Assembly (NCBI GenBank): GCA_000181795.3
Contig: CM012953.1
Coordinates: 18,040,887-18,104,886, forward strand
Direction: 5' to 3'
Source of the DNA: Trichinella spiralis
Taxonomy: Eukaryota > Nematoda > Enoplea > Trichinellida > Trichinellidae
Length of the DNA stretch: 64,000 nt
The notes below the pieces were generated by a model. That model worked only from the letters and a program-made list of their open reading frames with translations. It was not told where the DNA came from and ran no database searches. Positions 4,081 through 60,616 of the stretch are shown piece by piece (the first letter of the stretch is position 1; each line of letters starts with the position of its first letter). Position numbers and translations under genes: made by a program.

Positions 4081-4580
4081 AATAGTACGTGTCTATTTCA
4101 GTTATAAAAAAAATTCCCAGGTTCTAGAGATTCTCAGGTCGTGAGATACATAGGTTGAAATAAAGTACAAATTTAAATATTGAGCTCCCAATACATTTTC
4201 CCTCGTATATTCATCACTTATGATCGTTTTTCTTCGTTCTACATTTAATTCAACAATAGGAGCATGGCGCGAAGTAACCAAGCCGTTAATGATGGCAGAA
4301 TCGCAAAACTAATTATTTTATGCGCATAAAAAAATACGTTGCTTTAAAGCAACGTTGAGCGTTAAAGGGTTAACAGGCACTTTTGCTCGCTGTTTTATGA
4401 ACTTCAGAAAATTCTCGATTTAATTATAAAATTTTAGAAAATGTATTAGAAATTCACAAAAACAGTAGGGAATATGGTGTGTAGGCTGATGTAATACTGT
4501 ATTATGTGAACATTGCACTTCATTTTCTTTTTTCATACTGTAGAACTTTATCTTTATCTCTTGTTTATTTTACTTTTCTC

Positions 4581-11676: not shown

Positions 11677-12781
11677 ATGTTCACATTCCTGTTTGCTTTA
11701 AGTGTTTTATATGCAACTGCTGGTAACATTTTAAAAGTATATCTATCTATTCAATGGAAGTTGATAAAAAATATCTTTTAGGTGCACAGTTTTACGGTTC
11801 ATCATCTTCTTCATATAAAGTTTACAGAAATGGTGAATTAGTAGATAGTGGTTCCAGTCAAAGTGGAATGCCTGACTTCTTCTCAAACAATGGTCGAAGT
11901 TTCTTCTCAAGCATGTTTTCTGATGATGATTCTTTCGGTTCTATGAAAAATAAAATGCTACAGAATAGTAGATTTGGCGATTCATTTGGAAAAGACAGTG
12001 GATCTGATCGCAGCTTTATCATTTCAAGTAGAGGAAGTCCAGGAGAGTTTGGAGGTAGTGATTTCTTTTCTTCAAATGGAAAATCATTGCCAGGACAATC
12101 TGGCGGTAGGAGTAACATAGCTGATGCAACTTACAGTACAAAGCCTCAAGACAATGTCAAGTTAAGTAAAGGTGCAGTAACATTGTCAGAAAAGGTCAAA
12201 AAGTTCGTCACTGATGATCATAACAATTACCGCAAAAAGGCTGCAAAGGGTCAATTAAAAGGACAGGGAAAAGCATCTGCTATGAATGAGTTGAAGTGGT
12301 CAGATGCCGTTGCTGAGAAAGCAGCTGAATGGGCATCTGGATGCCAGTTTATGCACAGTCCAAAAGGCAGATATTGCGGTCTAGAAGGAGCAAATAATAT
12401 TGGTGAGAATTTAGCAGTCGGTACATTTCACGGTTCATTGTCTGGAGAAGATGCCTATATTGAAAAATTCCGTACTTCGATCCATGATTGGTTTGAGGAA
12501 TATCAGAATTACGATTTTCAGAATGCTCGATGCAAGAGAGGAATGTGTGGTCATTATACTCAAGTAATCAAAAATCAAATATACATAATTTTACTTTTAT
12601 TTTGCTCATTTTACAGATGGTCAGTGACACCACCTTAAAATTGGGGTGCGCTTTGTCTATCTGTCCGAATGGAACTCCTCAGTTTGCTAATGGAAGATCA
12701 GTGTATTTAGTTGTTTGTAATTATGCTCCAGGGTAAGATGCACAATTTTATCATATTTCAAAACTAAATAGCGATGAATAC

Positions 12782-21075: not shown

Positions 21076-21763
21076 GGTTTGGTTCAGAACGGTCCCACTT
21101 TTCAACGCGCTTTATTATTGGTCGTTTATTGCGCTATTTTATTGGGCCGTCAAGTCGTTGTCTTATTGGTTTTCTTTGTCTAATTGCTCATTGATTCAAA
21201 TCTTTCCCTTGTGATTAGCTGTAATATTTTTTCATTTCATTGGTTCAAATATTCCATTTAGGATTACGTAACTTTAATAGTAGTGACGCAACATCAATAA
21301 TGGAAATTTTATTATTCCAAAATTTTATTGTTTGTTTGAGGTTTTGTCATTCATTGAAATTTTGTTTATTTAAATATATTATTTGTGGTGAAGTTTACAC
21401 TTTTTCATGATCAGCATTCCCGAAAATAATTTTTATCATTATTCTATATTTATTGTACCAAAGTGACGTTATATCAAATGCGATAGTAATAATTCAGAGA
21501 AAACAATACAAAAAATAAGTTAAATAGTGATTTTTATTTTTCACTAGCCAACAGCAGCAGCAACAACAGTAAAGAACAGCCAACAACAACAACAACAATA
21601 AAAAACAGTGAATGGCATTAACAAAGTGGAAACAGCGAAAAAGCAAGAATCTAAATAATACAATACAATACAATACAACACAACACAACACAACACAATA
21701 AAATACAATCCACCACTTGGAAGGCGGCATTAAATCGGCTCCGGCGTTGTATACATTAATGCT
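21076..21763. mobile_element. MULE terminal region and transposase C-terminus, cut by an assembly gap
   Basis: It begins with the terminal-repeat sequence ggtttggttc...cggtcccactttt. It continues through the ATTGG-rich subterminal region and CAA/CAACA simple repeats. It ends in the last ~13 codons of a minus-strand MULE transposase (stop complement at 21,725-21,727 by alignment). The last ~675 bases are almost identical to 47,077-47,750. The remainder of the element falls in the N gap. Confidence 0.75.
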
Positions 21764-27432: not shown

Positions 27433-28780
27433 TCAACGGATTTTACCAGTTCTGGATGCCTCACCTAGGTCTATCAACGCTCTTCTGTGCCGTAGAAAAT
27501 CTATGCGCAGTAAACAGTGGTGGGACAGGCTTCTCGCGACGATCATTGAGTGTCTGGTCAGTAACGTGTCCCTGATGTTGATGTCCACCTCTGCCGTACC
27601 TACAGTCTCAACGCGCTCTCCGTTCGCGGCCACAATTTGCCTACTTCCGTACTTGCTAATTCTTACATTATTGGCCATGTTAAGTTCAGCTTCTCGAATC
27701 AGGCTGATAGCCGCGCCGGTGCCAACCAGCAATTTCAAACTACGGCCGTTACCTTCCCTGATAGCTCTACAGCCCACTTCGTATTCACGCTTCATATTGC
27801 TGCTTTCTGGGTAGGTTTCCTCCTGCTTTTAATGAGAGGTCTTCTTACCTGCTCACCGGTTGTACTCAAGGACGTCTCTCTCTTCTGGTCTTTGACAACG
27901 GGCAGGACCGGTGATAGTGACCGCTACTGCCGCAGTTCCAGCAGACTGCTTCAGCCAGTCGTTGGGAAGGACGATTCACCGTCCGGGTTCGCGGCTGTTT
28001 TAGATGGACCGACCGAGTTAGCATTCTGTGAAACTCATTCACCAGCTTTTCAATGTCTTGCTGGCAATCCACACTAACCACTAATGCTTTCGGCACTTCC
28101 GCATCTTCTTTCTCTAGCGCTGTGGCCGCACGTTTTTCTGCGGCCGCTGCTGTCGATCCACTTTTTGCGACGCCAACACATTGTTTGCCTGTAGCTACTC
28201 GATCATTCACATAGGCAACTGTTGCACCGCTTATCGCTGACCTCATCCTGTTCAGCACCGTCTCCTCCTGTCGCGCTAATTTTAGCATCTCAGCTAACGG
28301 CTTCTCTTCTACTCGAACTAGCAACTCACGTATTCTGTCATTACTCACGACCCGTATAAGTTGATCTTTAGCCATTTGCGTTTGGACCTCTTCGCCTGCT
28401 GAAGGGAACGCTTATTTCGACACGGATACAAGTCGAGTACTGTACGACTCGACGTTTTCTTCAGGTCTTTGCGTCGAACGTGACAGTTCCATGCGTCATT
28501 CGAAGTGATTCACTTCAACGCGTAGTTGGTTCAACAGGCTGTCTATAAGGAAGTTGTAGTCCGTTTCAGGAGTGAGACGGTAGTATGTAGTCTCAGTCAT
28601 GATATTTTCATTTAGGTCCATGAAAATTAAACTTGGCTTCTCACAGTCAAGGATGCGAGCTACCTTGAAAAACGCTTCCAGACGGGCGAACGAACAAGTG
28701 ACGCCATCCTTCTCTGTCAACATGGACAGAGGGGGAAACCACTGAGTGGTTCTCTGTTGTATCCCACTCCTGTCACCAAA
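27433..28780 (-). pseudogene. Gypsy-like gag-protease fragment
   Basis: From right to left: a gag N-terminal segment (28,772-28,496), a gag C-terminal segment ending in a CCHC knuckle (CWNCGSSGHYHRSC, in 28,375-27,866) and, in another frame, a protease segment (27,795-27,433). In the protease the catalytic DTG is GTG (LLVGTGAAISLI) and the flap/terminal region HHCLLRIDFL is visible. The gag-protease frame change could reflect a former programmed shift. The element is cut off after the protease, with no RT present. The adjacent LTR at 28,781 is in the right position to be its 5' LTR. Confidence 0.7.
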
Positions 28781-29095
28781 TGTATCGCTCTTCTGCTCCT
28801 TCTTTTTAACGTCATCAAAACGAGTCATAATGCGGAGAGTTAAACGTTTATTTCTCAACAAGCACAGCACACCGACACTGATCAAGATCAACAAACCAAC
28901 TGATCTTGTTTACTCACTGCGAATTCTCACTTCCGCCTTCCTTGTCTGATCTGCTTCTAGCCAATCAGTGTTCCGCAGAGTTCCTCATTTGTCGATAGGT
29001 GGCGACTCGGTTTGTGGTCTATAATGATTTACCCGTAATAATAATTATGACTATTGTGTGATTTCTTTATGTCTAATTATTTGTGACCCGTTACA
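28781..29095 (-). repeat. 5' LTR of the Gypsy-like element (315 bp)
   Basis: On the minus strand it begins TGTAACGGGTCAC and ends GAGCGATACA. It contains AATAAA (near 28,850) and is followed by TTTGGTGACAGGAGTGGGAT, a plausible primer-binding site and leader. Gag follows directly. Confidence 0.7.
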
Positions 29096-29336
29096 TATAT
29101 TACATTTTGAGCAGTAAGTAGCGTTAAAGGGAAAAAATTTTATTTCTAATAAATAAAGCCAAATATCAAGACAATAAATACTTTTGGAATCATTAATAAT
29201 AAATCAGCGTTTAAAAATAAAAAATTTTCCCATTTATTTCGAATGAATGTAATAAATGAAAATCAGTGCAGCTTCTTATAAATTTTTACTAAAAAAACAT
29301 TTTTTTCACTTTAAGCCGTTGAAAAATAAATATCAA
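29096..29336. other. Spacer downstream of GILT
   Basis: AT-rich spacer between the Gypsy-like LTR and the 3' end of the GILT gene, with AATAAA-type words for GILT near 29,210 and 29,325. Nothing else was seen. Confidence 0.4.
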
Positions 29337-30386
29337 TTATTTGTGATCTTTGTATACCTGCAAATTCTTTCGCTGTTTCAACAGATTGGTTAACACCGCA
29401 CAACCTTTTGGTACAGAACCGCGGTAACAGTCGCACAAAACATTAAAAAGTCCATTTTGGTAGATTTGCAATAGTGCTGTGCTGAGATTGTTAATCAATA
29501 TCCAAGTGTGACGGCGACCGCGAAATTGCACCTGCGCATCATGTTCACCTTTTTGTAGGGCGACCGGTGGTAAAAACAAAAAGGTCAGCGTGGTGAACGA
29601 CGGCAGTGTATATTTCGGCGGTAGTTATACGGTGTGCGCGTCCCGGTTTGTTGAACCTTTGTAATATAGCCCTTTTGTATAATCTCTTATATCCCGTTGT
29701 TTATAATAAACTCTCTGTATTATAAATGGTGCGGATGAATCGAGCGCCTGACGGCGCTACACAAGAGACAAAATAATGCGGATGAGGTTTGATATTTTCA
29801 GTAATTTCAGCAATTTGAAGCTGAATCAGATCACCTTGTACGCTATTTGCGCATTTGTACATTGCTATTGACAAAGTTTGGTCTAGTTCCTTCTTTTTGC
29901 TGCAAAGTAAGAATGCCGCATCGGGATCCATTTTCAATTTGGCCACTCATTAAAACAAACGATCAACGGAAACCATTTTCCCACGTACACCTGCTTGCAT
30001 ATAGAACAGCCGGGAACTTTGTTCAGAGCACATTCAACGGGACCATGTTGACATTGCTTAGTCCATGTATTGTTAAGTTGGGTTCGCCTAGCGTTACCGT
30101 AAGGGATCAAATTAAAGTCGACAGAATCTTGCCCATATTTCCAATCATATCGTTGCAAAGTATTCAAAATAAACTCTTGACAATCTGGACAAAGAGTTTC
30201 ATAAAGTAGTGTCAATTTGATTTTCATGTCCAACTGAGATGTGTTGTAATGCAAGCATGAATCCAAAACTGAACATTCTATAGCCAGAATTTCATTGTTG
30301 CACCAAGGTGCTGTCGGAATATTACATCTTTCATTTATGAAAAAAGTGGTAAACCACAACAACAAACAACAACGGATAAAAGCCAA
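29337..30386 (-). pseudogene. GILT-family lysosomal thiol reductase gene, disrupted
   Basis: The reading starts at ATG 30,386 with a hydrophobic signal (AFIRCCLLLWFTTFF). It has the CPDC active-site pair and the full GILT signature CQHGPVECALNKVPGC, then VGKWFPLIVCFNEWP. GILT enzymes reduce disulfides of endocytosed proteins in lysosomes. Near 29,940 the frame shifts by one base, and homology continues at once in the next frame (KMDPDAAFLLC...AEITENIKPHPHYFVS). There a 255-bp solo LTR interrupts the codon after FVS, and the C-terminus (WILINN...VLCDCYRGSVPKGC) follows to a stop at 29,337. Removing the LTR and one target copy restores the junction reading FVSWILIN. Two independent lesions suggest a pseudogene, unless the shift is a sequencing error. 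Confidence 0.85.
29507..29761 (-). mobile_element. Solo LTR inside GILT (255 bp)
   Basis: On the minus strand it starts TGTAGCGCC and ends CCGTCACA. It is flanked by the 4-bp direct repeat CTTG (caag on the + strand at 29,503-29,506 and 29,762-29,765). Length, TG...CA ends and a short target duplication fit a solo LTR of a Gypsy-like element. No internal genes are present. No polyadenylation signal was recognised with confidence. Confidence 0.75.
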
Positions 30387-32300
30387 AATAATTCAACATT
30401 TTATTATTGTTGAATAGAACAAGCAGCTTTTTTTCTGAAGAAAAGGGCAGCATGTCCCAACAGAAATGAAGCATTCAATAAAACAAACTAATCGTCGATG
30501 CGTATAATAATAATACACAACAACATTTGTGACACTTGTTCATTTTGTTATCACATTTTACGCTTCTTATCAATTTTTAATTTATCTTTTGCATATTGTT
30601 TCTCCAAAATCAATTTTCAACCGGATGCATAGCTGTGCCTTAACTAAAACTTAAATTGTTCTTATTATTAGTCAACTTTGACACTTTCGTTCTAACAACT
30701 GTTACCTTTTGCCATATCTACATATCACATATATGTATATATTTTTTATTTATTTATATTTTGTTTCTGCTTTTCGCTGTTTTGGTGCTTATTTATGTAT
30801 TAAGCACTGCTCAAACATGACCACATTAATGTTGACGTCAATAAATCCGTGAGTTATTTTCCTATTCATTAATTTTTCGTATTTTTATGCCTATTTGCTG
30901 ACGAATATATTCAGATAAAACGCTCACTGTTCAAATGTTTGTTTTATAACTTTGCATAAAGATTAAAATAAAACCACGAATCACGTAAATCGTAAATTAC
31001 AACTTTTATTCAAATTGAATTATATTTTCACTTCAGATTAAATTGAAAATGACTACGATAATCAGTAAAGTATTGAATCACTTTTGTTTACTAATGAGTG
31101 TTTAAACAAATTTTTTGTTCTTCATTTATACAACCCAGTTTTAAATAACTACTAATTTTGAAAAATATTTTACTTCATTCAAATGAGCGCAATGTTATAT
31201 TTTAATGAAACTATCAAATATGAATTATATATTGTAATAAACATTATCGGTCGAATATTAAAGTCAAATGTACTGAAAACATTGATAAAATTTGAAAAAG
31301 GAAAGAAGCTGACTTTTATGAGATATATGCTGCTGTTGTTTCTATTGTGTAAACAATCAAATTTGCCTTTTTTTAATTCAAAGCTTGCCAAATATGCACT
31401 TTCACCTCAAACTGATTAGACTGATCAAATTATTTCGTTACTTTTGCATTATCATGCACTTCATTGCTTCATTATTTGTATTTATATTTGTTGCTATTGT
31501 TAATATTTTACCAATAAATTATTGTTCATATAAAATACTTGACATTTATTGAGTAAGAAAATAAAAAATTGACTACAGAAACTTTTTCATTATAAAGCAT
31601 TAAACATTTTCATTAATTACAGCTGCTGCAGTTCATTTTTGTGAAATTTTTGCTGTTTTCAATAAAAAATAATAAGCAGCAGAAGAACATTTAAATTCTA
31701 TATTATTAAATTAAACGACATTCACGACTGTTCTTCCGTTACAAACTAACTATTTGCCGCAAAAAACAAATTGTCTCATAGTGAATAGTATCGTTCTATA
31801 CCAGCAGTTGATTCGGGAAATTGTTAAGTCGAATAGTCGATCATGACAATTGGGAGCTGATGCTATAATCGCTGGATGTGTCCTCGCATTTTTCACAATA
31901 GAAGCCGTGGCTTAATTACCAAGCGTGAATGGGCTGTGCAGCAGATGCCTTCACACTTTGTCAATAGAGCACTTCATTGGTGCAGTGCTTCAAGTTAGCT
32001 AAGGTCTGAGTCATTAAATTCCAGTCCATACTCTCTATAGGTTTAAATCTTCACTGTAAATTACAAAATGTGCACTGTACACTTGCGCCTTTATTGCACT
32101 AATATTGCATAAAATGAAGATGAATTGTTTCATTCATCGCCCAAATATAAGCTTGAATGATATAAATACATCTGCAGCAATACACATATTGATAAGTTTG
32201 TCTTTATTGTGATAATAATCAGATTTAATTAAAGTTTGAAATGCATTGTGATTATTGCGTGTAGTGATAACATGTAATTTTCGCAGTATGCAGGCACTGT
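30387..32300. other. Intergenic region
   Basis: Between the start of GILT and the stop of the PAN-like gene. It holds a near-perfect small palindrome (ttcaacattttattattgttgaa at about 30,391-30,413) and AT-rich DNA. ORFs here overlap on opposite strands, have low complexity and are not convincing. Confidence 0.5.
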
Positions 32301-35264
32301 TTATCTTATGATTGGTTCACAAAAAAGCAACTCTGCAAAAACAGAAGCCTTTTCTCTGATGAAATAAGTTTGCATATGAGTCATTCGTTCTAACAGAAAG
32401 CAGGTTTTGTAAAAGAAGTAAATCGCACTGCATTTGATTGTGTGCATAACTGCAGCACAGTTTGTTAGACACTCTTGCAGAGTAGATATATTTCGTATTT
32501 CTATTATTACTGACCAACCGGTTAAAAATAAAGATTTATACAATTCCACTTGACAAACTTCATCCAGAATCGGTAATACATGCAATTCAGGTGGATTGTT
32601 GTCAGCACGTTCGTTTTCTCTATCTAAAACAAAAGAATAAAAATAGTAAACAAGTTATAAAATAGTGGCTGATGTATGTGTAAATTGATCTTTATGATGA
32701 TGCTTTTATAGAAGCGAAGTAATTTTATTCCAAAAATAAGAACAGCTAATTTCAATGCTTGAATTAGTTTCATTTTATTACGGAAAAATTGGCATACTAT
32801 TTATTGTATGCGTTTAATAAATTTTGAATTTAACTTGAAATGTTACTATTAAAACTCTCTTACCTTTTGAGCAATTGTTAAGCATTAAAAAATGATATCC
32901 TTCGTTTAGAAAAACTTCATCATCATAATTTCCAAGAACTGCAATGAGGCATACTTCACTTTCTTTAGAATAAGCAATACCTAGGCATAAACCGAAGTTT
33001 CTTATGAAGCGGCAAATGCGTATACAATCGTTCAAATGTGAAATATTCGTATATTGTTGAACAAGGTTTATCCATGGAATTACGTTTGAAAACGAATGCT
33101 GAACTGTGCAGATTTCTTTAAAATGAAATAAAGAAACTTTTGCGACAGTGGTGAAATGATTTGAATGTTTTAGTCGAAGCATTCTTAGGTCTTTTACAAT
33201 GTTGATGAGCAACCCATCTAGAACAAAAAAATTATAACAGCTTCATCCAGCTTCTGGCTTTGTCATGCATACTTTCTTTCAAAGATAATTTATTACTAGC
33301 GTGTGACCTTACTTGTTCCTACATTATGACAAACTTTTGAAATCACAGCTCATTTTAAAATAATTTACGAGAATTTACAAATTTGGTTTGGTACTACTCG
33401 GTCCCGCTTTTCTCTCATTGGTCATTACCCACGCTATTTTATTGGACCGTCAAATCTTAATCACAACTGAAGAGCTTGAATCAATGAGCAATTAGACAAA
33501 GAAAAACCAATGCGACAAAGATTTCACTGAGGAATTAGACAAAGAAAACCATTACGACAAAGACTTCACGGCCAAATAAAATGAAAACCAATACAACAAA
33601 GATTTGACGGTCTAATAAAATAGTGTGGGCAAAGACCAATGAGAGAAAAGCGGGACCGAGTAAAACCACCCCTACAAATTTACAAATATACGCATTAAAT
33701 GTAATAATTATAATATTTCTGTATACTCATACAGACATTTCAAAGAATTCCCACTATCATACTAAAGTTCGGTCATGTTATGCCAATTTCACATTAACAT
33801 GCGAATCATATTTTAAATTCATTAGCTTTCTTACCGTCAGAAAACTGTATTATACGGCGGTTAAGTGGGCTGCTTGGCAAAGCGTACTTTTTTCTTATAC
33901 TAAAAGTGAGACACGTCTTTTCACCATGTTGAAAATAGTATCCATCACAGTAATCTGCCCAGAATTCATCTAAGCATATCATTAAACAATAGTTTTCATC
34001 TACAGTCTCCCATAATCCAATGCGAATGCCGGCTTTCGCTGCATAAAAATGTACACGATATAATGATACTGTCAGATTAAATATACTGTAAACTGTTGGG
34101 GCTATTTCTCCAAACTTTGGGATAGAATACGCATATGGAAAATCGAAATCTTAAAAAGAAAATATGCTGAGTAATGCATAATAATAAAAATGAAAGTATC
34201 ATGCTGCTAAATAATTGTGTAAGTAACAAATACTCATAAATATTATGTTAATAAGAAGTAATTATGAAGTATTAAATACTAATGATTTTGTTGAAATTTT
34301 TATCAATGCTTTGCTAACTTGGAAATAAGAATCGTATTTTTATTTACCGTTATAACATCTTAAAATAATAAAGAACAGTGCAGAGGTTTGTAGAGTCGGT
34401 ATAATTCCCCCAAGTGATGGTAAATTTCTATCTCGAGATAGAAGAAGACAGGTTTCTTCTTGGGCAGAAAACAAAACGCTGTTGCATGAAGTGTAAGTAG
34501 GTGCTTCACAAAATGCAATACAGCGTTTCAGAGAAGATGTTACAATAAGATGAATGCGTTGAGCATAAAAGTTTTCCACAAAAGGAAACCCCAAAAAGTC
34601 GCAATTCTTGTGTGTAGAAGGTGTGTGTATTTTTGCCGAATTATTCCACTGATATACACTTTGAACTATGATTCCCACAGGAATATTTGAAATGTCTAAA
34701 TAAAATACCAGAATATTTCAAACAATTTATTTTTTTGATTTAAAAAATTCATTTATAAATTTTCTATTTTTTGTTACTTTAAAAAATTATGCGAAAAGTG
34801 GAAAATGTTTTGTCTGGTGTATGGTAGAAAATTTAATTTTTCATAAGTGATAAGTATCATACCCTCGTAACAGCTGTGCAGTTGAAGATTCAACGACTGT
34901 CCTATCTGATCGATTGGCGGCGAAATATGACCAGTTGCATTTTCGTAATACAGATTACACACTTTTGCAAAAGGACTGTATTTAATTAAATTACAGGAAG
35001 GTAGAAGCAGGAAACAAGCAGCTACACAACTTTCCATACTGCAATAGGCCTGTTTAATGTGAAGAACGTCCTCATGGCGAATTGCTTTTGCAGTTAACAC
35101 ACAGGTAGCGTCCAATTTTGGAATATACAATGACATCCATGAACAATCGACCAGCTAAAGAGTAAACATCACATTAAATGCTTCATTGAAAGATTCAACT
35201 CACTTAGACTTACGTAGCAATTTATGAAGCATATTATTGCAAGAAGCGACCATTGCCTTAACAT
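32301..35264 (-). CDS. Secreted protein of five PAN/apple-like cysteine modules
   Basis: Six exons (35,264-35,214; 35,154-34,863; 34,695-34,348; 34,149-33,835; 33,217-32,864; 32,623-32,301) join with GT/AG borders to 560 aa. Exon 1 is a signal peptide (MLRQWSLLAIICFINCY). Each other exon encodes one module of ~97-118 residues. The middle three are phase 1-1, so modules are symmetric. Modules share the PAN-type core C-x3-C...C...C, e.g. CIAFCEAPTYTSCNSVLF...TCLLL and CLTNCAAVMHTIKCSAIYFFYKTCFLL, and modules 1, 2 and 4 end in CYEG, CYNG or CSKG at the exon border. PAN domains bind proteins or glycans outside cells. No family name is assigned, no transmembrane segment follows, and sequence similarity between modules is low. 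Intron 4 contains a MULE-type MITE. Confidence 0.85.
33385..33672. mobile_element. MULE-type MITE (288 bp) with 9-bp target duplication
   Basis: The long inverted repeats (~60 bases) run ...actcggtcccgctttt... on the left and their complement ...gggaccgagta... on the right. The flanking direct repeat TACAAATTT (33,376-33,384 and 33,673-33,681) is 9 bp, the size made by MULE transposases. The termini match the ends of the larger MULE copies at 21,076, 57,198 and 60,616. It lies in an intron of the PAN-like gene and in the element's own TIR the ATTGG/CCAAT word recurs. Confidence 0.85.
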
Positions 35265-36828
35265 TGTATCTAAATGTAATTTATCTTTTCATGCCTGTTA
35301 AACAATTGATTCCGGTTTGCAAGATCTCGACAAATTTCACGCATCTGTTCACGTTAATAAGTTGTTCCAAAAATAAATCTTGCATTCCACAAGATAAATA
35401 TTACCTTCAAAAACGCGCAGGACATCATTTTAAAAACTTATTACTAATCAATTTTGTTTTCTGCAAAGTTAAAGAACTTCTGTACGTCACGTTAATGTTA
35501 TCCAGGGACAGGGATACATTTGGACAGCTTTTGAGAAGAAAACGCTTCGTGTTTTAAAGCAATTCACCTTAATCGACGAGCTTGATGTTCACGACAGCGT
35601 TAGTTGACACCTCAGCCGTGTGTTGCTATTTTGCATATGGAATTATTTCTGCCCTGAATAATTTTCATCATAATAACTAAAATTTTGCAGCAAGCAGAGT
35701 GGTTTGTAAATTTTGAATTTCAATTATTTTGATTTAAATTATTCATGTTTTATATTGGAACTATTTTATTTACAATATTGACATTCAGTTAATTGTTTTA
35801 AAATGCACGTGCACGATTTAATTCATAACAAGCAATGTTATAAATTGCTTGAAAACAGAGAAAACTCTTCAAAAAGAAAGTAATATATATGTCAACAAAT
35901 GAAATATGACGAAATAAATATCTACTCGATTGTGATGAGATTTATAGCTATTGTACGATGATTGAAACATCATCACTTTAGAAAAAAAAGGTATCATATT
36001 TTTAGCATAGCGTATCTCTGAGAGCTTAAATATTTTAATCACTTTGCAATTCCATAAATATAGGCATTTTCATGCGCGTGTGTGTGTGAGCATGTGTCAT
36101 AATATTTTTGCAAAATGTTATTTGTATTCTCAAGTCAGCTTATAGTGCTGATGTGAATAAGCTGGAAAGAAATGTGTTTACTTTCACTTAATGAGACCTG
36201 TAATTCATTTTCGAATTCACTTTTTGTTCTGTTTCTGGAAAGCACAGCAAATTAAATGCATTTATCAATATTGATACATATTAATAAGCAAATTCCAAAA
36301 TGTGAAATATTGTTGGCAATATGCAGGTAGCAATGTTTTATTAAAAAGCAGACATCATTGAATTTATATTGAAATTTCTGGCACATGTTGTACGTTTACT
36401 TGATTGTTCGCATATGCATGTGTGTGTTTGTGGGTCATAATATAAGTGCAAAATGTTTTTTATATTTTTAAATCAACTTATAAGATATTTGATGTGATTA
36501 AGCTGGAATGAATAATGTTGACACTCAATTAATGAAACTTAGTTAAAAGCAATTGAATTGCCCCATATGGAACTTTTGAAGTTCATTATGAAGTTGATTG
36601 ATTATTGATTGAGAAGTTGTGTAAGAGATTTTTTGAATTACGCATTTAGAATTTATTTGAAATTACTTTATTTCTTACTTAATCGAATGCTATGAATTTG
36701 TTATTTTATAATGTGATTTGTTCAGGCGGTGTGAACAAAATTAAGCAGAAAAATTTAGAAAAATTAAGTAATTTACCTAATAACATTTCCACTAATGATG
36801 TAAAATATCAAAAGTAATAAATAAATAA
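35265..36828. other. Intergenic region upstream of the PAN-like gene
   Basis: AT-rich sequence. Two diverged blocks, about 36,070-36,200 and 36,410-36,550, share the order catgtgtgtg, gtcataatat, tgcaaaatgtt, tcaactta and taagctgga, which points to an old tandem duplication. No gene was recognised. Confidence 0.5.
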
Positions 36829-37426: not shown

Positions 37427-38310
37427 TCACTCCCTGGCAGGAGTTCGGTAAAAGCTTCCAGCTTCCAGCTTCCAGCGATTGCGGGGAACCGTGTCTTCGG
37501 TGACAAGCACCAAATCATCGACCTCCGGTTGACGGTCGATCTTCTTCCACTTGCCACGAACACTGTGGGAGACCAAATACTCTTCCGTCCACCGTTTCCC
37601 CAAATGGCGCATCAACAGTTGCTGGAGCCGCCAACGTCTGCCAAGATGCCTGGCCCCCGTTCCGCTGGGCGTTTCTGCAGAGGAGGTTGGAAGCGCGGCG
37701 AGTTCTCTTCCAATGAGGAAGTGCGCCGGGGTAAGTGGAGCACAGTCCTTTGGGTTTTTGCTCAAGAGCGTGAGCGGCCGGTTGTTAATGCGAGCTTCCA
37801 ACTCGCACAAGGTGGTCCGGAGTTCGTCGAAACGAAGCAGGCTTCTTTCGAGCACCTTCCGCAGTGCGTTCTTGACTGACCGAACAAGCCTCTCCCAGTA
37901 TCCGCCGCTCCAAGGAGCTCTTTCAGTGGTGTATCTCCACTGAATGCACCTGCAGGCCAACTCCTTCTGAAACTGTTCAGCGCGCTTGCCGACGAAACGC
38001 AAGCGGATGAACGCATCTGCCTGCTTGAATGTTCGGAAGTTATCCTACTGGATCACTTCCGGGTGCCTCTCCTGGCCACAAAGCGGAGGAACGCGGTGAG
38101 AAAACTCCTGGTCGTCATGTCGGCAACGATCTCAATGTGCACTGCGCGAGTTACCATGCAGGTGAAGAGACAAATGTAGACCTTCCTCACGCCGCGATCT
38201 TCATCCCGCACATGTAACGGCCCAGCAAAGTCCAATCCTGCGTGACCAAACGGAAACGTAGGTTCCACTCGAGCGACCGGCAGTTCAATCATGAAAGGAC
38301 AGAACTCGAC
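37427..38310 (-). pseudogene. BEL/Pao element B integrase, C-terminal part
   Basis: The frame from 38,310 shows AGLDFAGPLHVRDED and FLFTCMV-type integrase core sequence (ICLFTCMVTRAVHIE). After a frame break come GGYWERLVRSVK (the catalytic Glu context), LTPAHFLIGR and the C-terminal WKKIDRQPEVDDLVLV domain, with the stop at 37,427. It joins, at 38,310, the truncated LTR of element A. The rest of element B is absent. Confidence 0.85.
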
Positions 38311-38496
38311 GGTGTAGTGATAAACCACAACACAAACAATAAACAACACGCCCACGCAATACAGAACACAACACAACGCTACGATTCACACGCAACTAGT
38401 TTTTTTATCTCCGTCTGTGACGTCATTCTACCGTAACCCACCGTAGCCCGCGCTCAAGTACAGGCCATCAGGTTCACCGTAGAATAAATTCCAACA
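38310..38496 (-). repeat. Truncated 3' LTR of element A
   Basis: It begins TGTTGGAATTTATTCTACGG and breaks off after CACTACACCGT, where element B integrase sequence starts. It is almost identical to the first half of the 5' LTR at 44,116-43,930. Confidence 0.9.
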
Positions 38497-38526
38497 GACT
38501 CCCCCTTAATGGGTGGAGCCCATTAA

Positions 38527-40636
38527 TTAGCTTCGGCTGGTTCCAGCAGCACCAGCATGCGTATCGATCAGCACAAGGTGCTTGCTGCAGTCTTGACTTT
38601 TGTCGCCAGTGAGTAACTCAACGATTCGGCCAAGAGGCCAACGGCGTCGTGGAGTATTGTAGTCAGCAACCAACACCACGTCGCCAACACGGGGTTGCTC
38701 GTGTAACCTTTTCCATTTTCCCCTGGAACTTAGAGTAACCACGTACTCTCGTTGCCAGCGCTTCCAAAAGACCTCAACGAGTTTCTGCTGATAGGACAAC
38801 GGCGTAGCAGGTGTCTCAAACTACTGCGCAGTGTTCCACGATCAGCACTGTTGCTCCGGTCAGGAAATGACGCTAGACTTCGGCTGATGAGGAAGTGGGC
38901 TGGAGTAAGGGCCATCTCCTCATCTACGTCGCTTCCCACAAAGGTCAATGGACGTTCGTTTACACGAGCTTCTATTTCGCACAATACCGTGCGCAACTCG
39001 TCAGGCGCCGCCAGACATTGGCCTAACGTTGCCTTCAATGCGGTTTTCACTGATCGCACAAGTGGTTCCCAGTACCCCCCGCACCAGGGGGAACGTTCCG
39101 TGATGAATATCCATTCAACACGTTCTGATGCGAGATGTCGTTGCACAGTTTCCCAATTTCGACCACTGAAAAGATGTTTCAAGAAGGCGTTCGCCTGATG
39201 AAAAGTTCTAAAATTGTCCGACTGGATGGTGTCAGGGCGTCCGCGACGTGCGACAAACCGTCGCAAAGCACGTAGGAAGCTATCGATCGTCTGGTCTGGG
39301 ACAAGTTCCAAGTGTATGGCTCGAATAACCATACATGTGAACAGGAAGATGTAAGCTTTCTTGCTCACATATTTGGAACTTTCACTTCTGATCAGTAGGG
39401 GTCCAACAAAGTCAATCCCAACATTGCTGAACGGCCTCGCTGGATTCACTCTTATCGCAGGCAGATCACCCATCCGTTGTCAGAACGGACGCGCTGCCAG
39501 TCGTTGGCAGATCCCACACGTGCGAATAACACGTTTAACGGCACTGCGACCACGAAGAATCCAGAATCTTTCTCTCAATGCCGTAAGAGTTTGAGCCACA
39601 CCGGCATGTAACTGTCGATTGTGCTCCCGTCTGATTAACAAATCCACGATCATCCCTTTTCGAGGGAGCAGAGCTGGAAATTTGGTTTCCTCTTCCAACT
39701 GAGCTCTGCCAAGACGTCCACCTACTTGCAAGACTCCGAACTCATCCAGAAAAGGGTTGAGACCGCACAACATCTTCGTCATCGCTTTATCCAGCGACTC
39801 TTTCAAGCCGAAGGCGTGGATCTGCTCTTGCCGGATCCAAACTCTCTCAGCTTCCTTCAACTCGTCCGACGTTAATCCAGTTCCTGTTCTTTATGAGCTT
39901 GCAGGCAGGGTCGTGTTATGCCGAAAACGTCGGCACCAGGCGGTTACTCGGATCAACCTATCAAAACTGGAATACCTACCCAGGTTGATGACATTGGCCG
40001 CATCCTGCGACGGTGAGACCGTCACCAATACAGCAGTCGCTCGACGTTCCTTTTCGAGCAGCTCTAGGCTCTCAATCCTTTCTTCCCTTTCGGCTTCCGG
40101 CCATGTTTCAGGGGGACCTCGCAACCAGGTCGGGCCCTGCCACCACTTCAGTGAAGTAGAGAGATTCTTCACAGTACAACCTCCGCTCGCAAGGTCCGCC
40201 GGGTTATCTTCAGTGGGGATGTAGCGCCACCACAGCGAAAGAGTGAGAACTTGAATTTCACGAACTCTATTCGCAACAAATGATTTCTACCAATTCACGT
40301 CTCCATTGATCCATCCCAATGCCACCTTGCTGTCACTCCAGCATGGCAAGCCTCCACGTCCAACGCCAGCTCTTTTCTCACGTAACAGACCAGTCGGGCA
40401 CAAAGAAGAGCAGCCATCAGCTCTAGCCGTAGAGTGCTCAACTTCTTCAGCGGAGCCACTCTGGATTTCGCTGTCACGAAACTCACCTGGACGTCATCTG
40501 GGGTCTTCACCGCCCTCAAGTACACCACTGCAGCGTACGCCGCTTCAGAGGCGTCACCAAACCCATAGAGCTCTAAACGGCTCGCTTCTGTCGGTGAGAA
40601 CTGGAAATACGCCCTGGGCATGGCGATGCAGGGCAA
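38527..40636 (-). pseudogene. BEL/Pao element A RNase H and integrase
   Basis: RNase H: LYGFGDASEAAYAAVVYLR at 40,636-40,295, then LVTVSPSQDAANVI in a second frame to 39,891. Integrase: the zinc region REHNRQLHAG...RTCGICQR in 39,860-39,480, the core GIDFVGPL, FLFTCMVIRAIHLE and GGYWEPLVRSVK in 39,473-38,730, then a shifted end EYVVTLSSRGKWKRLHEQPRVGD to the stop at 38,527. Several in-frame stops and at least two frame changes separate these pieces. Confidence 0.9.
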
Positions 40637-40663
40637 CTCGTTAAGCTCTAACTTCCAAACTCG

Positions 40664-42259
40664 TCACTGCAATACGACTTCTGCAGGCAGATTATCATCC
40701 CATGTCATACCAGTTTGCCACAGCGACTGGAACATCCGTTTCGCTCGGACCGTGAAAGGTGTTAGTCCACCGAGCGGATCAAACACTGAAGTCGCTGTCC
40801 GGAGGAGGTTTCTCTTGGTCTCTTGGTCTTGGTTTGCGGCTAACTCCGGTGGTCGGAAAGTTAGTTCATCTTCCTGTGGATTCCAAGAGATGCCCAGGTT
40901 TTTCCACAAGCAGCTATACCTGTCCCTGAAGATCTCCTCAGCTGGCAGGTCAACCAACGCTTCCGGGGCGTTATTCGCCCATTTCGCCAGATGGAAACCC
41001 CCACTGGCAAGCAACTCCGATGACCGATGAGCAAAATCCCTTGCTTCATCTATGGAGTCACAACTAACCACCAAGTCGTCCACATACATACCGACCTTAA
41101 TCTCATCGACGACAGTACCGAAACAGTCACGCTTCTCTCTTAAATGATGGTTCACCACCTGCATGGCTACGTACGGAGAGCAAGCTACACTGAAACACAC
41201 CCGTGTCAGACGGTACGTCGCAATAGGACCACCCAATCCGTCCTTCCTCCACAGAAAACGACAAACGCCGCGGTCTTCATCGAACAATCCCACTTGCAGG
41301 AACATCTTCGCGAGGTCCGATTGGAGGGCCACTCTAAAACGTCGGAATCGGAGTAGAATTCCTAGCAAATCAGCCTGCAGCTTCAGCCCCGAATCCAACT
41401 GTTCCTTCAGTGATGTTCCTTTGAACTTCACTGAAGCAACAAACACAATGCGATGCTTCATCGCCTCAGGACCCTGCTGGCTGACTACGTGGTGAGGAAG
41501 GTACCACGTTCGTCCGTGGGGTCCTTCCGAAGTGATTTCCTCTGCCCAACCATTCACAAGGTAGTTATGGAGTATGGAGGAGTGCACGTCCCTTCGTGAT
41601 GGCTCTCGGGCCATCCGCCGCTCGAGTGTCTCGAGGCATCGTTTCGCAACAGCGAAATTATCGGGCAGCCAACTGTTTTTCCAGAGTAGTCTCACCGAAT
41701 AGCGAGTTCCATCATATGAGAGCCCTTCACGGAACCGCTTCTCCGGATCGACTTCATCTGACTCGCTTCTGAAAGGGACGCCCATCTCTTCAATCTCCAA
41801 GAAGCGTCGGAGCAAGTTCTCGACGCTCAGTTCCACAACAGCGTTGAATGCGGCAACAGTCTCCGGTGCTGGGTGAGGATTCACTGGACCAAAGATGATC
41901 CACCCCAGAACAGTTTCCACGGCAACCGGGTCGCCTGGCTTTCCTCTTCGGATCGCATCTCCTAGGAATCGATAGTAGTAGTCGATGCCAATCACGACGT
42001 GCACTTCGTCAGACGATTCGTCATCGATGACCGGATCGAAGAATTGCAAGTGCTCCCACTCGCTTGTCAGGATCTTCGAAACTGGAATTCGGTGGCAGAG
42101 ACTCGGTACGGTGAGTGCCTCCAGAGGATAGCGCTCTGCATTTTGGCTGCCGTCAAGTCGGCCCAGCCAAAGCTGTACCACCTGGGAACTGGGATGCTCA
42201 TGGGTTGCACCACCGAACCCTTCAACCTTCACTGGCTGAGCTCTCCCGACAACTCCCAA
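40664..42259 (-). pseudogene. BEL/Pao element A reverse transcriptase region
   Basis: This is a 531-codon open stretch, the longest open frame in the window. It shows VVIGIDYYYRFLGDAIRRG, VETVLGWIIFGP, WYLPHHVV, LRFRRFRVALQSDLAKMFLQVGL and the catalytic YVDDLVVSCDSIDEARD, ending in FDPLGGLTPFTVRAK. The RT centre is intact. Stops on both sides (42,289 region and 40,664) separate it from protease and RNase H. It lies in the same frame as both neighbours, so the polyprotein is broken by point mutations rather than by shifts here. Confidence 0.92.
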
Positions 42260-44743: not shown

Positions 44744-45378
44744 TATGGACAACTTGGTTCAACGAAGAGCTGCTCAAGTACGTTGGTTAAAGATTGCCAT
44801 GGAAAACATGGAAGCAGCTTTTGATGGTAGTGCTGAAACATGACAGATTTGTTTCGCAAAGCTTATGGACACATGGTCCAGATATGATGAAATTATCACA
44901 AAGCTGCTCGATGATACTATGGACCAGAAGACAATTGATGTTTACACTGAAGAAAGAGAAACTGTATGTGCCGACATAACAGAGATAGATCAAAGTGAAG
45001 GTGGAAAACATGGAACGTGAACTTGTGGTTCGAGAATGCAAGTCTACAGAATATACGCCAATAACTCAAACTGGAAGCTCAAATGTACGACTTCCAAAAA
45101 TGGAAATAAAGAAATTCAATGGTGAGTACCATGATTGGCAACGGTTTCACGATGAATTTGAGACAACGATCAATTCCAATTCAAATTTGTCACCGATTGA
45201 GAAATTCAATTATTTACGATCGTTGTTATCTGGGAATGCAGAAACTGCTATTCGGGGATTGACTCTGAATACGGTTAATTATGAAACTGCATTGACTATC
45301 CTAAATGAGAAATTTGGTGACCCTCAACTCCTTATTGAAGAACACTTGAAGAGCCTACAAAACTTACCGGTAATAACT
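44744..45378 (+). pseudogene. BEL/Pao gag N-terminal fragment, plus strand
   Basis: After the leader, the frame from 44,744 is broken and then open at 44,995-45,371 with the DUF1759-type sequence MEIKKFNGEYHDWQRFHDEFE and EKFNYLRSLLSGNAETAI. It stops abruptly at about 45,378, where minus-strand RT sequence of another BEL element begins. Confidence 0.8.
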
Positions 45379-45381
45379 GGC

Positions 45382-46440
45382 CTGGTTGCTGGCCCACTTC
45401 CTAAAGTGCAATCCACCTTTTCGTAGGAACTCTGGTACTCTACTAATCAACGCAGCTACCTCTGACTCCTCGTCACAACTCATCACCAAATCATCAACAT
45501 ACATGTTGGACAGGGCTCGCTTGATTATAACATCACATTCCTCTGGGTTTCGTTCCGCATGTGCTTTAATCACATTCATTGCGAGGTAAGGGGAACACGC
45601 TAACCCGAAACACACACAGGTAAGGCGATACACTCGCACCGGAGAGTCCTGTACGCAGTTGCGCCACAGGAAACGACAAGCATCGCGGTCTTCCACCCGG
45701 AGTGCAGCCTGCAGGTACATTTTCTCAATGTCAGCCTGCACTGCGATTTGGTACTGTCTGAAGCGGAGCAAAACGCCTACCAAATCGGTTTGCAGATTAG
45801 GGCCCGTTTCAAGGCATTGATTGAGCGAGACACCACCATATTTTGCCGACCCGTCAAACACTATTCGACATTTTAACTCACCGTTAACTGTCTTGTACAC
45901 CGCATGATGTGGCAGGTACCAAGTTATGCCATTCTGCTCGTGCTGACTTGTCACTTCTTCTACCCATCCATTTCGGATGTATTTTTCGATCACCGTGCTG
46001 TACGCTAGTTGTTTGGCTGGGTCTTTCATGATGCTCCTTTCTATGGCTTGCAGTCGTTGCTCGGCCAGTGAGCGATTGTTAGGTTGCCGGATTTCACCGG
46101 GTTTTTACAGTAGCCCCACAGTATAGCGTGAACCATCATGTGTTAGATTGCTGTGAAACTTGGCGCTTACCGAGTCTTGAGTTGGATTCTCTTCTTGTAG
46201 TTTGATGCCGATGGAATCCAGCTCCCAAAATTTCTTCAATGTCTGTTCGATTTCGTTTTCAATCTGAACACAACTGACTTGGGATGTTGGATTTGGCGAG
46301 GGATTCACCGGGCGAAACACGACCCATCCTAGCGTCGTTTCGATTGCTACCGGATCGTCATGGCCACCTCGCAGGATCTTCTCGCCAAGAAATCAACCGT
46401 AGAAATCGAGACCGATCAGAATATGGATTGGGAGATTCAT
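45382..46440 (-). pseudogene. BEL/Pao reverse transcriptase fragment, minus strand
   Basis: Reading leftward it shows VRYTVGLL-like DGSRYTVGLL, a stop, then ITWYLPHHAVYK, CRIVFDGSAKYGGVSL, IAVQADIEKMYLQAALR, SNMYVDDLVMSCDEESE and LHFRKWASNQ. The YVDD catalytic core is intact. Only this middle part of pol is present. It is joined tail to tail with a plus-strand gag fragment. Confidence 0.85.
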
Positions 46441-46569: not shown

Positions 46570-47066
46570 GGTGGATTGCGGGACAAATTTTCACGGTCTA
46601 ATTTTACTGGTCGTTGAACTCGCTATTTCATTGGACCATCAATTCGTCGTCTTATTAGTTTTCCTTATCTAATTGCTCATTGATTCAAACTCTTCAGTTG
46701 TGATTAGCTGTAATATTCTTCATTTCATTGGTTCAAATATTCCATTTAGGATTACGTAACTTTAATAGTGGTGACGTAACATTAATAATGAAAATATTCC
46801 TTATTTGGGAATTGTTTCAATCAAGATTTATAAGTTGTATCATTCATTGAAATTTTGTTTTTCCAAATATATTATTAAGTGAAAGTTTTATACTTTTTTA
46901 GTTGATCAACGTTTTTCAATAATTAATTTTTTATCATTTATTTCTATATTTTTATTATACCAGGAGTGACGGTTATTATTCAAAATGCGATAATAAATAA
47001 TTTCAGAAAAAAAACAATAACGAATACAAAAAATAAAATTTAAAATAGTGATTTTTGAATTTTTTT
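46570..47066 (+). mobile_element. MULE terminal region, diverged copy
   Basis: From tttcacggtc to the gap it aligns with the ATTGG-rich MULE end at 21,110-21,540 but with many substitutions and small indels. It is directly followed, across ten N, by a second, near-identical copy of the same region. Confidence 0.7.
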
Positions 47067-47076: not shown

Positions 47077-47682
47077 GTTTATTGCGCTATTTTATTGGGC
47101 CGTCAAGTCGTTGTCTTATTGGTTTTCTTTGTCTAATTGCTCATTGATTCAAATCTTTCCCTTGTGATTAGCTGTAATATTTTTTCATTTCATTGGTTCA
47201 AATATTCCATTTAGGATTACGTAACTTTAATAGTAGTGACGCAACATCAATAATGGAAATTTTATTATTCCAAAATTTTATTGTTTGTTTGAGGTTTTGT
47301 CATTCATTGAAATTTTGTTTATTTAAATATATTATTTGTGGTGAAGTTTACACTTTTTCATGATCAGCATTCCCGAAAATAATTTTTATCATTATTCTAT
47401 ATTTATTGTACCAAAGTGACGTTATATCAAATGCGATAGTAATAATTCAGAGAAAACAATACAAAAAATAAGTTAAATAGTGATTTTTATTTTTCACTAG
47501 CCAACAGCAGCAGCAACAACAGTAAAGAACAGCCAACAACAACAACAACAATAAAAAACAGTGAATGGCATTAACAAAGTGGAAACAACGAAAAAGCAAG
47601 AAACTAAATAATACAATACAATACAATACAACACAACACAACACAACACAATAAAATACAATCCACCACTTGGAAGGCGGCA

Positions 47683-48889
47683 TTAAATCGGCTCCGGCGT
47701 TGTATACATTAATGCTTCAAGGAACTGCGCCAGGGTACGACTACCGTTGGTGTATTCACCCGTATATTGGGAAACCCGTTGTTGCTTTTCATATAAACCC
47801 TGTTTACCCGTCTTAAGTACCAGTCTTAAATCACCTGTCGAATCAGGGTGTCCATCACACCCTGTTCTGCTGTCAGGATCTGGAGCAGTTCATAACAATC
47901 CGTTATGACTTTCAGCCGCTTTTCTGTTGAGCCGCGTGAGCCAACCTTCTAAGTGGTTATTGGTTCTGATATTTACATTATATACACTCCTGCCCTGTAC
48001 CCGCGTATTCAGGAAGTAGCCCTGAATCGCAGGTATCAGGGCTGTTTCAAAATCACAAATTATTGTTTGTGAATTGAGATTGACCCCGAGGACTGCCGCT
48101 TTGTTTATTAAAGCTTGAAATATAAATCCGTATGTTCCAATATCTTTACCCGTACATAAACAGTAGATTGCTGGCACCAGCTTACCCGCCACAAAAGCAT
48201 GGATAGTAAACAGTTGTTGATACCACTGTGGTACAACCTTGAAAGTACCATCCATGCACCAGGTTCGCATGGCTGCCAGCTGTTTAATGTTGTAACCCGT
48301 AGCCAATACCAGTATATGCCTCGATGCACTCTGCTACAATAAAAAAAATATTCACCGGCCTTCATTGTCTTGAACGGGACCGGGATTTGCAGGTCCCGAC
48401 GATGACAGGGCAGTTTTCGGTATCGCTTTGCCCGGTGGCTGTACATCGTGGACTTTACCTGTTTAAAGAGTGGAAAGTGGCCACATGTGGATGTCTGGGC
48501 AGACGCGGCGAAAGCTTCCTCATCATAGATGGCCGGGATTGTTTTCGTTTCTTCCGCGCTTCGCTTTTTCAAAAGCGTTTTCTTTTCTATTTTGTATGCC
48601 AAGTGCTCATCCACCGGGCAGCTTTCGATGTGATCATTCCGCTTGATAACCGTTGTCACATCAAGGTTGGTTCATATGGCACCACCGCAGCCTTTTTTAT
48701 CCTATACAAAAATAAACTAACCCTTAATAAATAACTAAAGAAACACACTGTACATTTAGCACATACTTTCGAGCATCTCCAATATTTCTGTCTGCCGGCA
48801 CGTTTTAATTTATATGCCCTGCCTTCATACACAAGGGACGTGCCACCGCAACGATTTGGTACAACATGTTAGTCATGGACATCAGCCAT
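47683..48889 (-). pseudogene. MULE transposase pseudogene with FLYWCH zinc finger
   Basis: The start ATG is at 48,889, with a stop at codon 7. The FLYWCH-type finger follows (VPNRCGG, YEGRAYKLKRAG, KYWRCSK). It is split by a short GT...TAG stretch near 48,745-48,698 that may be an intron, as the same place is interrupted at 58,080. Then come DEHLAYKIEKKTLLKKR and, after frame changes, the MULE core MRTWCMDGTFKVVPQWYQQLFTIHAF with IICDFETALIPAI. About 80 core residues are deleted before NNHLEGWLTRLNRK. The C-terminus ends near 47,683. Confidence 0.88.
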
Positions 48890-50961: not shown

Positions 50962-51870
50962 ATGGCAAATGAACCACAACCGATAAACGCTTTGCCAGAA
51001 GGACAAAGTGAGGTAAAAGGAGACAAGGTACAAGAAAATAAAGAAACAGTGGAATTGACCGGGAGAAGAATTTTTTTAGTCCGCCATGGAGAACGAATGG
51101 ATCGCGTTTTCCCAGGTTGGTTGCGTCTTGGTTTCACAGATTTAGGAGCGTATAGACCATATGATTTGAATATGCCATTAAGAGCAGTGAAACGAGAAAA
51201 TGGATGGAAAGATTTTTACAATGATCCACCGATTACTGAAATTGGTTATGCGACATCACAAATGATTGGACGAGGTATGAAACTGAGTGGAATTGGATTT
51301 GACATGGTCTACTGTAGTCCAGCTTTGCGTAGCATTCAAAGTGCCCATGGAATATTGAAGTCGTTTGCTGGTTCAAATACAAAAATTTGCATCGAAGCAG
51401 GTCTGTTTGAATATTTGGGTTGGTATGAAAATGCAAATTTGAATTTTCTTAATACTGATCAGTTGGTCAGTGAAGGATATGAAATACAACCAAATTACAT
51501 TCCATACATGATGGCGCAAACATTGAAAGATAAGTTTCATAGTGAAACTATTGAAGAATATTACAAACGAGTCAATACAGTGGTTAACTACATTGTGAGT
51601 TTGCATGGAAAAACAAAGTGCAATTTGTTGTTCGTCGTTCATGCACCAACGATTGATGCCATTGGTCGAAGTTTGATGAAAAAATCTGCTACTAATTTGT
51701 CCAATTATGAACTTAGCAAAATGGGTATTCATTATCCATATGCTTCTGTTGTCGGCTTAGAAGAAATAAAAGCAAATGGAGAATGGCAGTTAATGCCAAA
51801 TATATTGCCGCCAATTTCATGTTTAGATTTTAGTAACCGCGTAAATTTGAATTATTTTACTCGTCCATAA
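50962..51870 (+). CDS. Histidine phosphatase of the UBASH3/STS branch
   Basis: A single-exon ORF of 302 aa. Residues 36-50 give the phosphoglycerate-mutase-type motif FLVRHGERMDRVF (catalytic His42 with Arg41). Next come YDLNMP (67-72), DPPIT (88-92), CSPALRS with Arg123, EAGLFEY with Glu150, and the second catalytic His227 in FVVHAPTID. This pattern is that of UBASH3/TULA-like phosphatase domains, which remove phosphate from phosphotyrosine proteins or, in other members, from small molecules. The UBA and SH3 domains of vertebrate UBASH3 are absent. No signal peptide is present, so it is cytosolic. A TATTGAG|CA just before the ATG is a possible trans-splice acceptor. The substrate is not predictable. 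Confidence 0.92.
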   Translation: MANEPQPINALPEGQSEVKGDKVQENKETVELTGRRIFLVRHGERMDRVFPGWLRLGFTDLGAYRPYDLNMPLRAVKRENGWKDFYNDPPITEIGYATSQMIGRGMKLSGIGFDMVYCSPALRSIQSAHGILKSFAGSNTKICIEAGLFEYLGWYENANLNFLNTDQLVSEGYEIQPNYIPYMMAQTLKDKFHSETIEEYYKRVNTVVNYIVSLHGKTKCNLLFVVHAPTIDAIGRSLMKKSATNLSNYELSKMGIHYPYASVVGLEEIKANGEWQLMPNILPPISCLDFSNRVNLNYFTRP

Positions 51871-57197: not shown

Positions 57198-57714
57198 GGG
57201 GTATTCTTACTTGGTCTCACTTTTCTCTTATTGGTCTTTGTCCACGCTATTTTATTGGGCCGTCAAGTCTTTGTCGTATTGGTTTTCCTTGTCTAATTGC
57301 TCATTGATTCAAACTCTTCGGTAGCTCTAATATTTTTTCATTTCATTGGTTCAAATATTCCATTTAGGATTACGTAACTTTAATAATAGCGACGTAACAT
57401 AAAAAATGGAAATATTATTCCAAAATTTTATTGTATGTTTGAAGTTTCGTCATTCATTGAAATTTTGTTTATTTAAATATATTATTGGTGGTGAAGTTTA
57501 TACTTTTTCATCATCAACATTCCCGAAAATAATTTTTATCATTATTCTATATTTTATTGTATCAAAGTGACGTTATATCAAATGCGATAGTCATAATTCA
57601 GAAAAAACAATATAAAAAATAAGTTAAATAGTGATTTTTATTTTTCACTAGCCAACAGCACTAACAACAACAATAGTAAACAACATATCAGTGAACGACA
57701 TTAACAAAGTGGTA

Positions 57715-60009: not shown

Positions 60010-60616
60010 TATTTCATTGTATTGTATTATTTAGTTTTTTCCTTTTTCATTGTTTCCACTTTGTTAATGCCGTTCACTGTTGTTTTTTACTGTCGTTGTT
60101 AGTGCTGTTGGCTAGTGAAAAATTAAAATCACTATTTAACTTATTTTTTGTATTGTTTTTTCTGAATTATTACTATCGCATTTGATATAACGTCACTTTG
60201 GTACAGTAAAATAGAGAACAATGATAAAAATTATTTTCGGGAATGCTGATCATGAAAAAGTATAAACTTCGCCACAAATAATATGTTTAAATAAACAAAA
60301 TTTCAATGAATGACAAAACTTCAAACAGAAAAACAAAAATTGGGAATAATAAATATTTCCATTATTAATGTTACGTCACTATTTTTAAAGTTACGTAATC
60401 CAAAATGGAATATTTGAACCAATGAAATGAAAAAATATTACAGCTAATCACAAGGGAAAGATTTGAATCAATGAGCAATTAGACAAAGAAAACCAATAAG
60501 ACAACGACTTGACGGCCCAATAAAATGAAAACCAATACGACAAAGATTTGACGGTCCAATAAAATAGCGTGGGCAAAGACCAATAAGAAAAAAGTGGGAC
60601 CGAGTAAGAACAAGCC

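What the first reader, a model, noticed from the sequence alone, without database searches (positions are those of the whole stretch)
29503..29765. Solo LTR splits a codon of a GILT gene and can be subtracted exactly
A 255-bp block with TGTAGC...GTCACA tips and a CTTG duplication lies inside the GILT reading frame. Taking out the block and one CTTG joins FVS to WILIN in frame, which matches the usual GILT Y-V-P-W block. This is strong internal evidence for a recent insertion into a formerly working gene.
Basis: partly seen in the sequence, partly recalled or inferred. Interest (0 to 1): 0.75.

Follow-up and report, generated by a model that had tools for sequence, protein, structure and literature searches.

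The report
Solo LTR inside a dead GILT copy
A 255-base scar left by a Gypsy-type jumping element sits inside one broken, duplicated copy of a thiol reductase gene in a parasitic worm, almost certainly Trichinella spiralis; it is a clean but ordinary insertion.

Summary
Window 29507-29761 is a 255-bp solo LTR (TGT...ACA) between two CAAG copies (CTTG on the gene strand), inside a GILT (PF03227) copy on the minus strand. The block has 19 matches in this genome, itself included. Two LTR pairs 4.6-4.8 kb apart enclose Ty3/Gypsy gag-pol, with a primer site matching tRNA-Arg(ACG) at 18/18 and 16/18 nt. Eight of eight paralogues that align on both sides have the site empty, so it is an insertion, not an intron. 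The gene is one of ten close GILT copies, nine broken or truncated; one (L010) keeps a 266-residue frame. The window copy has two other frame lesions, one shared with sisters, and substitutions flat over codon positions. A deposited T. spiralis model of this locus ends before the LTR. So the LTR probably hit an already duplicated, probably already decaying copy. 'Recent' is not supported: K2P 0.061 to the nearest LTR read, against 0.012-0.013 within two near-full-length elements. Low interest.

The parts
29503..29506 (.). target-site duplication, copy 1 (CAAG on +)
   Evidence: one copy only in 8 of 8 paralogues that align on both sides
29507..29761 (+). solo LTR of a Ty3/Gypsy element, sense on +, antisense to the GILT copy
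   Evidence: 19 genome matches including itself; orientation from gag-pol of paired copies
29705..29710 (+). AATAAA in LTR sense orientation (possible polyadenylation signal, inferred)
29762..29765 (.). target-site duplication, copy 2 (CAAG on +)
29766..30399 (-). 5' part of the GILT copy (PF03227, CPDC and CQHGx2ECx2Nx4C motifs), with two frame lesions
29337..29506 (-). 3' part of the GILT copy, ending at the stop aligned with that of L010
29095..35558 (-). duplicated segment with the GILT copy and, upstream of it, PAN-domain coding pieces; stretches over 1 kb are 85-93% identical to nine other places on contig C1. The right end is where the fetched stretches stop, not a measured boundary
27866..29094 (-). 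neighbouring sequence abutting the left end of the segment: zinc-knuckle ORF 27866-28375 and a dispersed repeat 28860-29094 (13 matches in the genome including itself); retroelement nature inferred

Best explanation
A Ty3/Gypsy retrotransposon of a tRNA-Arg-primed family integrated, making a 4-bp target duplication, into one copy of a segmentally duplicated GILT gene in a Trichinella genome (almost certainly T. spiralis). Recombination between its two LTRs then removed the inside and left one 255-bp LTR. The copy was already a redundant duplicate and probably already out of frame, so the insertion most likely had little or no effect. Shown: LTR, target duplication, family, empty sites, segmental duplication, other lesions. 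Inferred: LTR-LTR recombination as the route, the order of events, the lack of effect.
For: 19 family matches including itself. Two LTR pairs with outer spans of 4,779 and 4,625 bp; CCHC, protease, RT, RNase H and integrase in Gypsy order in one, integrase in the piece tested of the other. 4-bp repeats at 8 of 9 insertions read. Primer site 18 of 18 and 16 of 18 nt complementary to the 3' end of tRNA-Arg(ACG), with at most 12 in 2,000 shuffles, if the outermost pair of ARAGORN's call is trimmed. Empty site in 8 of 8 paralogues aligned on both sides. L010 has 266 codons from the Met aligned with the start of P0001, the length given for the cloned T. spiralis GILT (passages of PMC8631631). Window differences from L010 by codon position 21/19/22, private 12/7/11. 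A length change near the signal peptide shared by WIN, L011, L015, L016, L017 and L020 (6 of the 7 copies other than L010 that cover it), and a one-base loss found in none of the 8 others that cover it. Deposited T. spiralis protein P0025 matches window 30326-29937 at 100% over 130 aa and ends there, before the LTR. That solo LTRs arise by annealing of flanking LTRs is stated in a review of nematode chromosomes, PMC9071541 (passage).
Against: The copies are mosaics: the window copy is 98-99% identical to L026 in 250-bp bins from about 30596 to 31346 and lower, mostly 86-93%, in most other bins, so the shared lesion could have arrived by gene conversion after the LTR. Only four sister copies with a proven empty site (L011, L015, L016, L017) share it; L020 is cut off before the site. 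L014 has a different length there that keeps the frame but its GILT match has stops, and the proteins of other species differ there, so the ancestral state is unclear. The deposited model P0025 skips the shared lesion with a short predicted intron, so it may not have been fatal. No orthologous locus of another strain or species and no RNA could be examined.
Confidence: 0.8

Rival explanations
1. The LTR was the first lesion: a working GILT gene was killed by the insertion and the frame lesions came later.
For: One of the two lesions is private to this copy, and conversion between copies could have brought in the shared one later. The end branch of the LTR (0.05) is longer than that of the gene copy (0.033), though both rest on few sites.
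Against: The other lesion is shared with four sister copies whose site is empty and a fifth that is truncated, so the simplest order is lesion first.
Confidence: 0.18
2. The block is an intron, spliced out of a working transcript.
For: It lies inside a coding match and has a GT one base from its 5' edge on the gene strand; no RNA was available to exclude it.
Against: 8 of 8 paralogues aligned on both sides lack it, L010 included; it has a target duplication, LTR tips and dispersed copies; the last AG on the gene strand is 25 bases before its 3' edge.
Confidence: 0.02
3. The LTR changes expression of this copy or its neighbours (promoter or polyadenylation signal antisense to the gene).
For: LTR sense strand is opposite to the gene and holds AATAAA at 29705.
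Against: No expression data; the frame in the deposited model already ends before the LTR.
Confidence: 0.05

Closest known systems
Solo LTRs of Ty3/Gypsy retrotransposons
   Same: TGT...ACA tips, 4-bp target duplication, paired copies with gag-pol, tRNA primer site and purine-rich stretch before the 3' LTR
   Different: Nothing of kind. tRNA-Arg priming resembles the 412/mdg1 group (recalled); the clade was not tested and no repeat library was searched
Tsp-GILT of Trichinella spiralis (PMC8631631)
   Same: Paralogue L010 has the reported length (266 aa) and motifs
   Different: The window copy is a broken, duplicated relative interrupted by the LTR; the paper's own sequence was not compared

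Membership tests
Ty3/Gypsy LTR retrotransposon (solo LTR) | LTR tips and short fixed-length target duplication | tested here: met
   CAAG/CAAG here; 4-bp repeats in 8 of 9 insertions read
Ty3/Gypsy LTR retrotransposon (solo LTR) | same LTR found as pairs around gag-pol in order protease, RT, RNase H, integrase | tested here: met
   full order in one pair (L032 then L031), integrase in the piece tested of the other (L030)
Ty3/Gypsy LTR retrotransposon (solo LTR) | tRNA primer-binding site after the 5' LTR and purine-rich tract before the 3' LTR in full copies | tested here: met
   18/18 and 16/18 nt to trimmed tRNA-Arg(ACG) end (only 4/18 and 5/18 to the end as ARAGORN called it); purine-rich run with one C at the 3' LTR, seen by eye
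Ty3/Gypsy LTR retrotransposon (solo LTR) | solo state: target repeat directly at both tips, no internal sequence | tested here: met
BEL/Pao retrotransposon (for the LTR) | Pao-type peptidase (PF05380) in pol | tested here: not met
   none of five pieces of the paired copies hits PF05380 at E 0.01
Endogenous retrovirus with env | env reading frame between integrase and 3' LTR | tested here: not met
   in L031 the integrase frame ends about 105 bp from the 3' LTR; one element looked at
GILT (PF03227) | domain match, CXXC and CQHGx2ECx2Nx4C signature | tested here: met
   motif definitions from passages of PMC8631631
GILT (PF03227) | uninterrupted frame from start to stop | tested here: not met

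The most novel reading that the evidence does not exclude
The PAN-GILT copies on contig C1 form a pseudogene reservoir that exchanges tracts by gene conversion, so that broken copies diversify or erode the one intact GILT gene.
Probability: 0.04. Interest if true: 0.55.

Novelty: new member of a known kind. Interest (0 to 1): 0.15.

Why it matters
The empty site is present in the same genome, so the insertion can be shown without a second genome. It also warns that some annotated Trichinella GILT 'genes' are fragments of broken duplicates: two deposited T. spiralis proteins match broken copies of this set at 100% (P0012 to L025 over 139 aa; P0025 to the window over 130 aa). Counts of the gene family should rest on the intact copy.

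Tried and rejected
Intron reading: rejected on 8 of 8 empty sites, without RNA. BEL/Pao origin of the LTR: rejected, the paired copies are Gypsy, although BEL/Pao pieces lie elsewhere in the window. 'Recent': not supported. The first primer-site search found only the element itself; the second gave nine matches, six of them returned as loci, and one of those six holds a tRNA-Arg(ACG). Compared with the tRNA end as ARAGORN called it, the match is poor; it is 18/18 and 16/18 only after trimming the outermost pair, which I judge to be spurious. A solo LTR cannot be dated from a pair of its own. Of the 12 PF03227 matches, L020 (truncated before the site) and L009, L012 (too distant) say nothing about the empty site; a further GILT fragment at C1:18817428 was not read. 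Of 19 LTR matches, 8 were not read at their edges; two of these (C1:17713480 and 17718008) may be a third, more distant pair. In the LTR tree the pairing of the window LTR with L002 has only 81/78 support, and L008 was left out as the same place as L031. Literature: listings (9 of 9 papers shown; 12 of 34; 12 of 2,865; 3 of 3; 6 of 6; 10 of 49) showed no title or abstract start on this insertion or on GILT duplication in Trichinella; unlisted papers were not seen. PMC7846577 and PMC13334664 were searched for terms only: no 'GILT' in their main text. PMC8631631 and PMC9071541: passages only.

Full report
What is there. The block 29507-29761 is 255 bp, with CAAG directly on both sides (29503-29506 and 29762-29765). 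A search of the 53-Mb genome with the block gave 19 matches including itself, 16 on contig C1 and 3 on C3. Nine of the others cover nearly the whole block at 80-91% identity, four more at 73-75%, and five are partial. I read the edges of 11 of the 19, which make 9 insertions: 7 with a single LTR and 2 near-full-length elements. Eight of the 9 have a perfect 4-bp repeat at the tips; the ninth (L005) has lost its 5' tip.

The element. Two pairs of LTRs in the same orientation span 4,779 and 4,625 bp (C1:295551-300329 and C1:19112415-19117039). Searched piece by piece, the inside of the first pair has zinc knuckle, aspartyl protease, RT and RNase H in one frame and integrase in the next piece, the Ty3/Gypsy order; the piece tested of the second pair has the integrase. 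In L031 about 105 bp separate the integrase frame from the 3' LTR, so there is no room for an env gene. After the 5' LTR and two bases comes a primer site. A tRNA-Arg(ACG) gene was found in L038. Its acceptor stem suggests that ARAGORN's outermost pair is spurious; with that pair trimmed and CCA added, the primer site is complementary over 18 of 18 nt in one element and 16 of 18 in the other (best of 2,000 shuffles 12), against 4 and 5 of 18 with the end as called. Gag-pol runs in the direction that makes the window LTR sense on + and antisense to GILT. A 956-bp integrase-region probe gave 15 matches, itself and partial ones included, all on C1.

The host gene. The minus strand holds a GILT copy (PF03227, E 4.2e-22) with CPDC and CQHGx2ECx2Nx4C motifs. 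PF03227 has 12 matches in the genome: the window; eight (L010, L011, L014-L019) that align on both sides of the site and have it empty, with one copy of the target; one (L020) truncated before the site; and two (L009, L012) too distant. Of the ten close copies, all but L010 are broken or truncated. L010 (C1 about 2.01 Mb) keeps one frame, 309 codons from the first Met and 266 from the Met that aligns with the start of the T. patagoniensis protein P0001; 266 aa is the length given for the cloned T. spiralis GILT (PMC8631631, passages). The species is almost certainly T. spiralis: two deposited T. spiralis proteins match this genome at 100%, P0012 to L025 over 139 residues and P0025 to the window over 130.

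Was it a working gene when hit? Probably not. Apart from the LTR, the window copy has two length changes that break the frame relative to L010. One, near the signal peptide, is shared with L011, L015, L016, L017 and L020, i.e. 6 of the 7 copies other than L010 that cover it; L014 has another length there. The second, upstream of the LTR, is in none of the 8 other copies that cover it. Substitutions against L010 fall 21/19/22 on codon positions 1/2/3, the private ones 12/7/11, as expected without selection on the protein; but the sister copies are flat too, and L010's own private changes (2/6/5) are too few to judge. The T. spiralis model deposited for this locus (P0025, 141 aa) bridges the first lesion with a short predicted intron and stops at the second, before the LTR. 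Cautions: the bridge could be a real intron, and the copies are mosaics: the window is 98-99% identical to L026 at about 30596-31346 but lower, mostly 86-93%, in most other bins, so a shared lesion need not be older than the LTR.

How old? A solo LTR has no partner to be dated with. Its nearest relative among the others read is L002: 14 differences in 240 sites, K2P 0.061. The two LTRs within each near-full-length element differ by K2P 0.012-0.013. The window LTR is therefore not among the youngest read; 'recent' is not shown. The solo state is explained by annealing of the two LTRs of one element, a route stated in a review of nematode chromosomes (PMC9071541, passage); it is inferred here.

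The wider setting. The GILT copy is part of a duplicated segment, window from about 29095 to at least 35558, where the fetched stretches end; alignments over 1 kb to nine other places are 85-93% identical, while the left 412 bp are only 77-78% in two of them. Upstream of GILT on the same strand lie pieces of PAN-domain coding sequence; two of five pieces tested pass Pfam's cut-off. A T. pseudospiralis protein model (P0003) joins such a stretch to GILT; its first part matches window 33083-32853 and 32624-32517 at 67-69%, so the two genes were probably neighbours before the duplications. A probe in the PAN part finds 13 long matches including the window, all on C1, and 6 short ones; the GILT probe finds 11 including the window, four of them partial. 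At its left end the segment abuts a dispersed repeat and a zinc-knuckle frame.

Verdict. A correct and well-observed insertion, of an ordinary kind. The subtraction is supported by real empty sites. 'Recent' is not supported, and 'formerly working gene' is doubtful for this copy, though true of the family.

Noticed in passing
window 29095-35558; C1 1.99-2.02 Mb and 18.81-19.12 Mb: PAN-GILT segment present about ten times or more on contig C1, with patchwork identity that suggests gene conversion among mostly broken copies
   Followed up: partly
window 21124-21763 and 47077-47716: 640-bp direct repeat, 99.7% identical, 26 kb apart, with related copies at 46604-47017, 57228-57672 and 60081-60526 (inverted): perhaps LTRs of another, younger family
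   Followed up: no
window 37427-42259 (-), 45364-46029 (-): BEL/Pao-type and other retroelement pieces (PF05380, DUF5641, RVT_1)
   Followed up: no
contig C1 of the genome: all 15 matches to the Gypsy integrase probe and 16 of 19 LTR matches lie on C1; could be a chromosome bias
   Followed up: no
window 2490-3152 (-): transposase-like frame, PF13843, E 9.9e-36
   Followed up: no
window 11754-12638 (+), 50962-51870 (+), 4506-5030 (+): CAP-domain, histidine-phosphatase and CWC25 matches: likely host genes or exons
   Followed up: no
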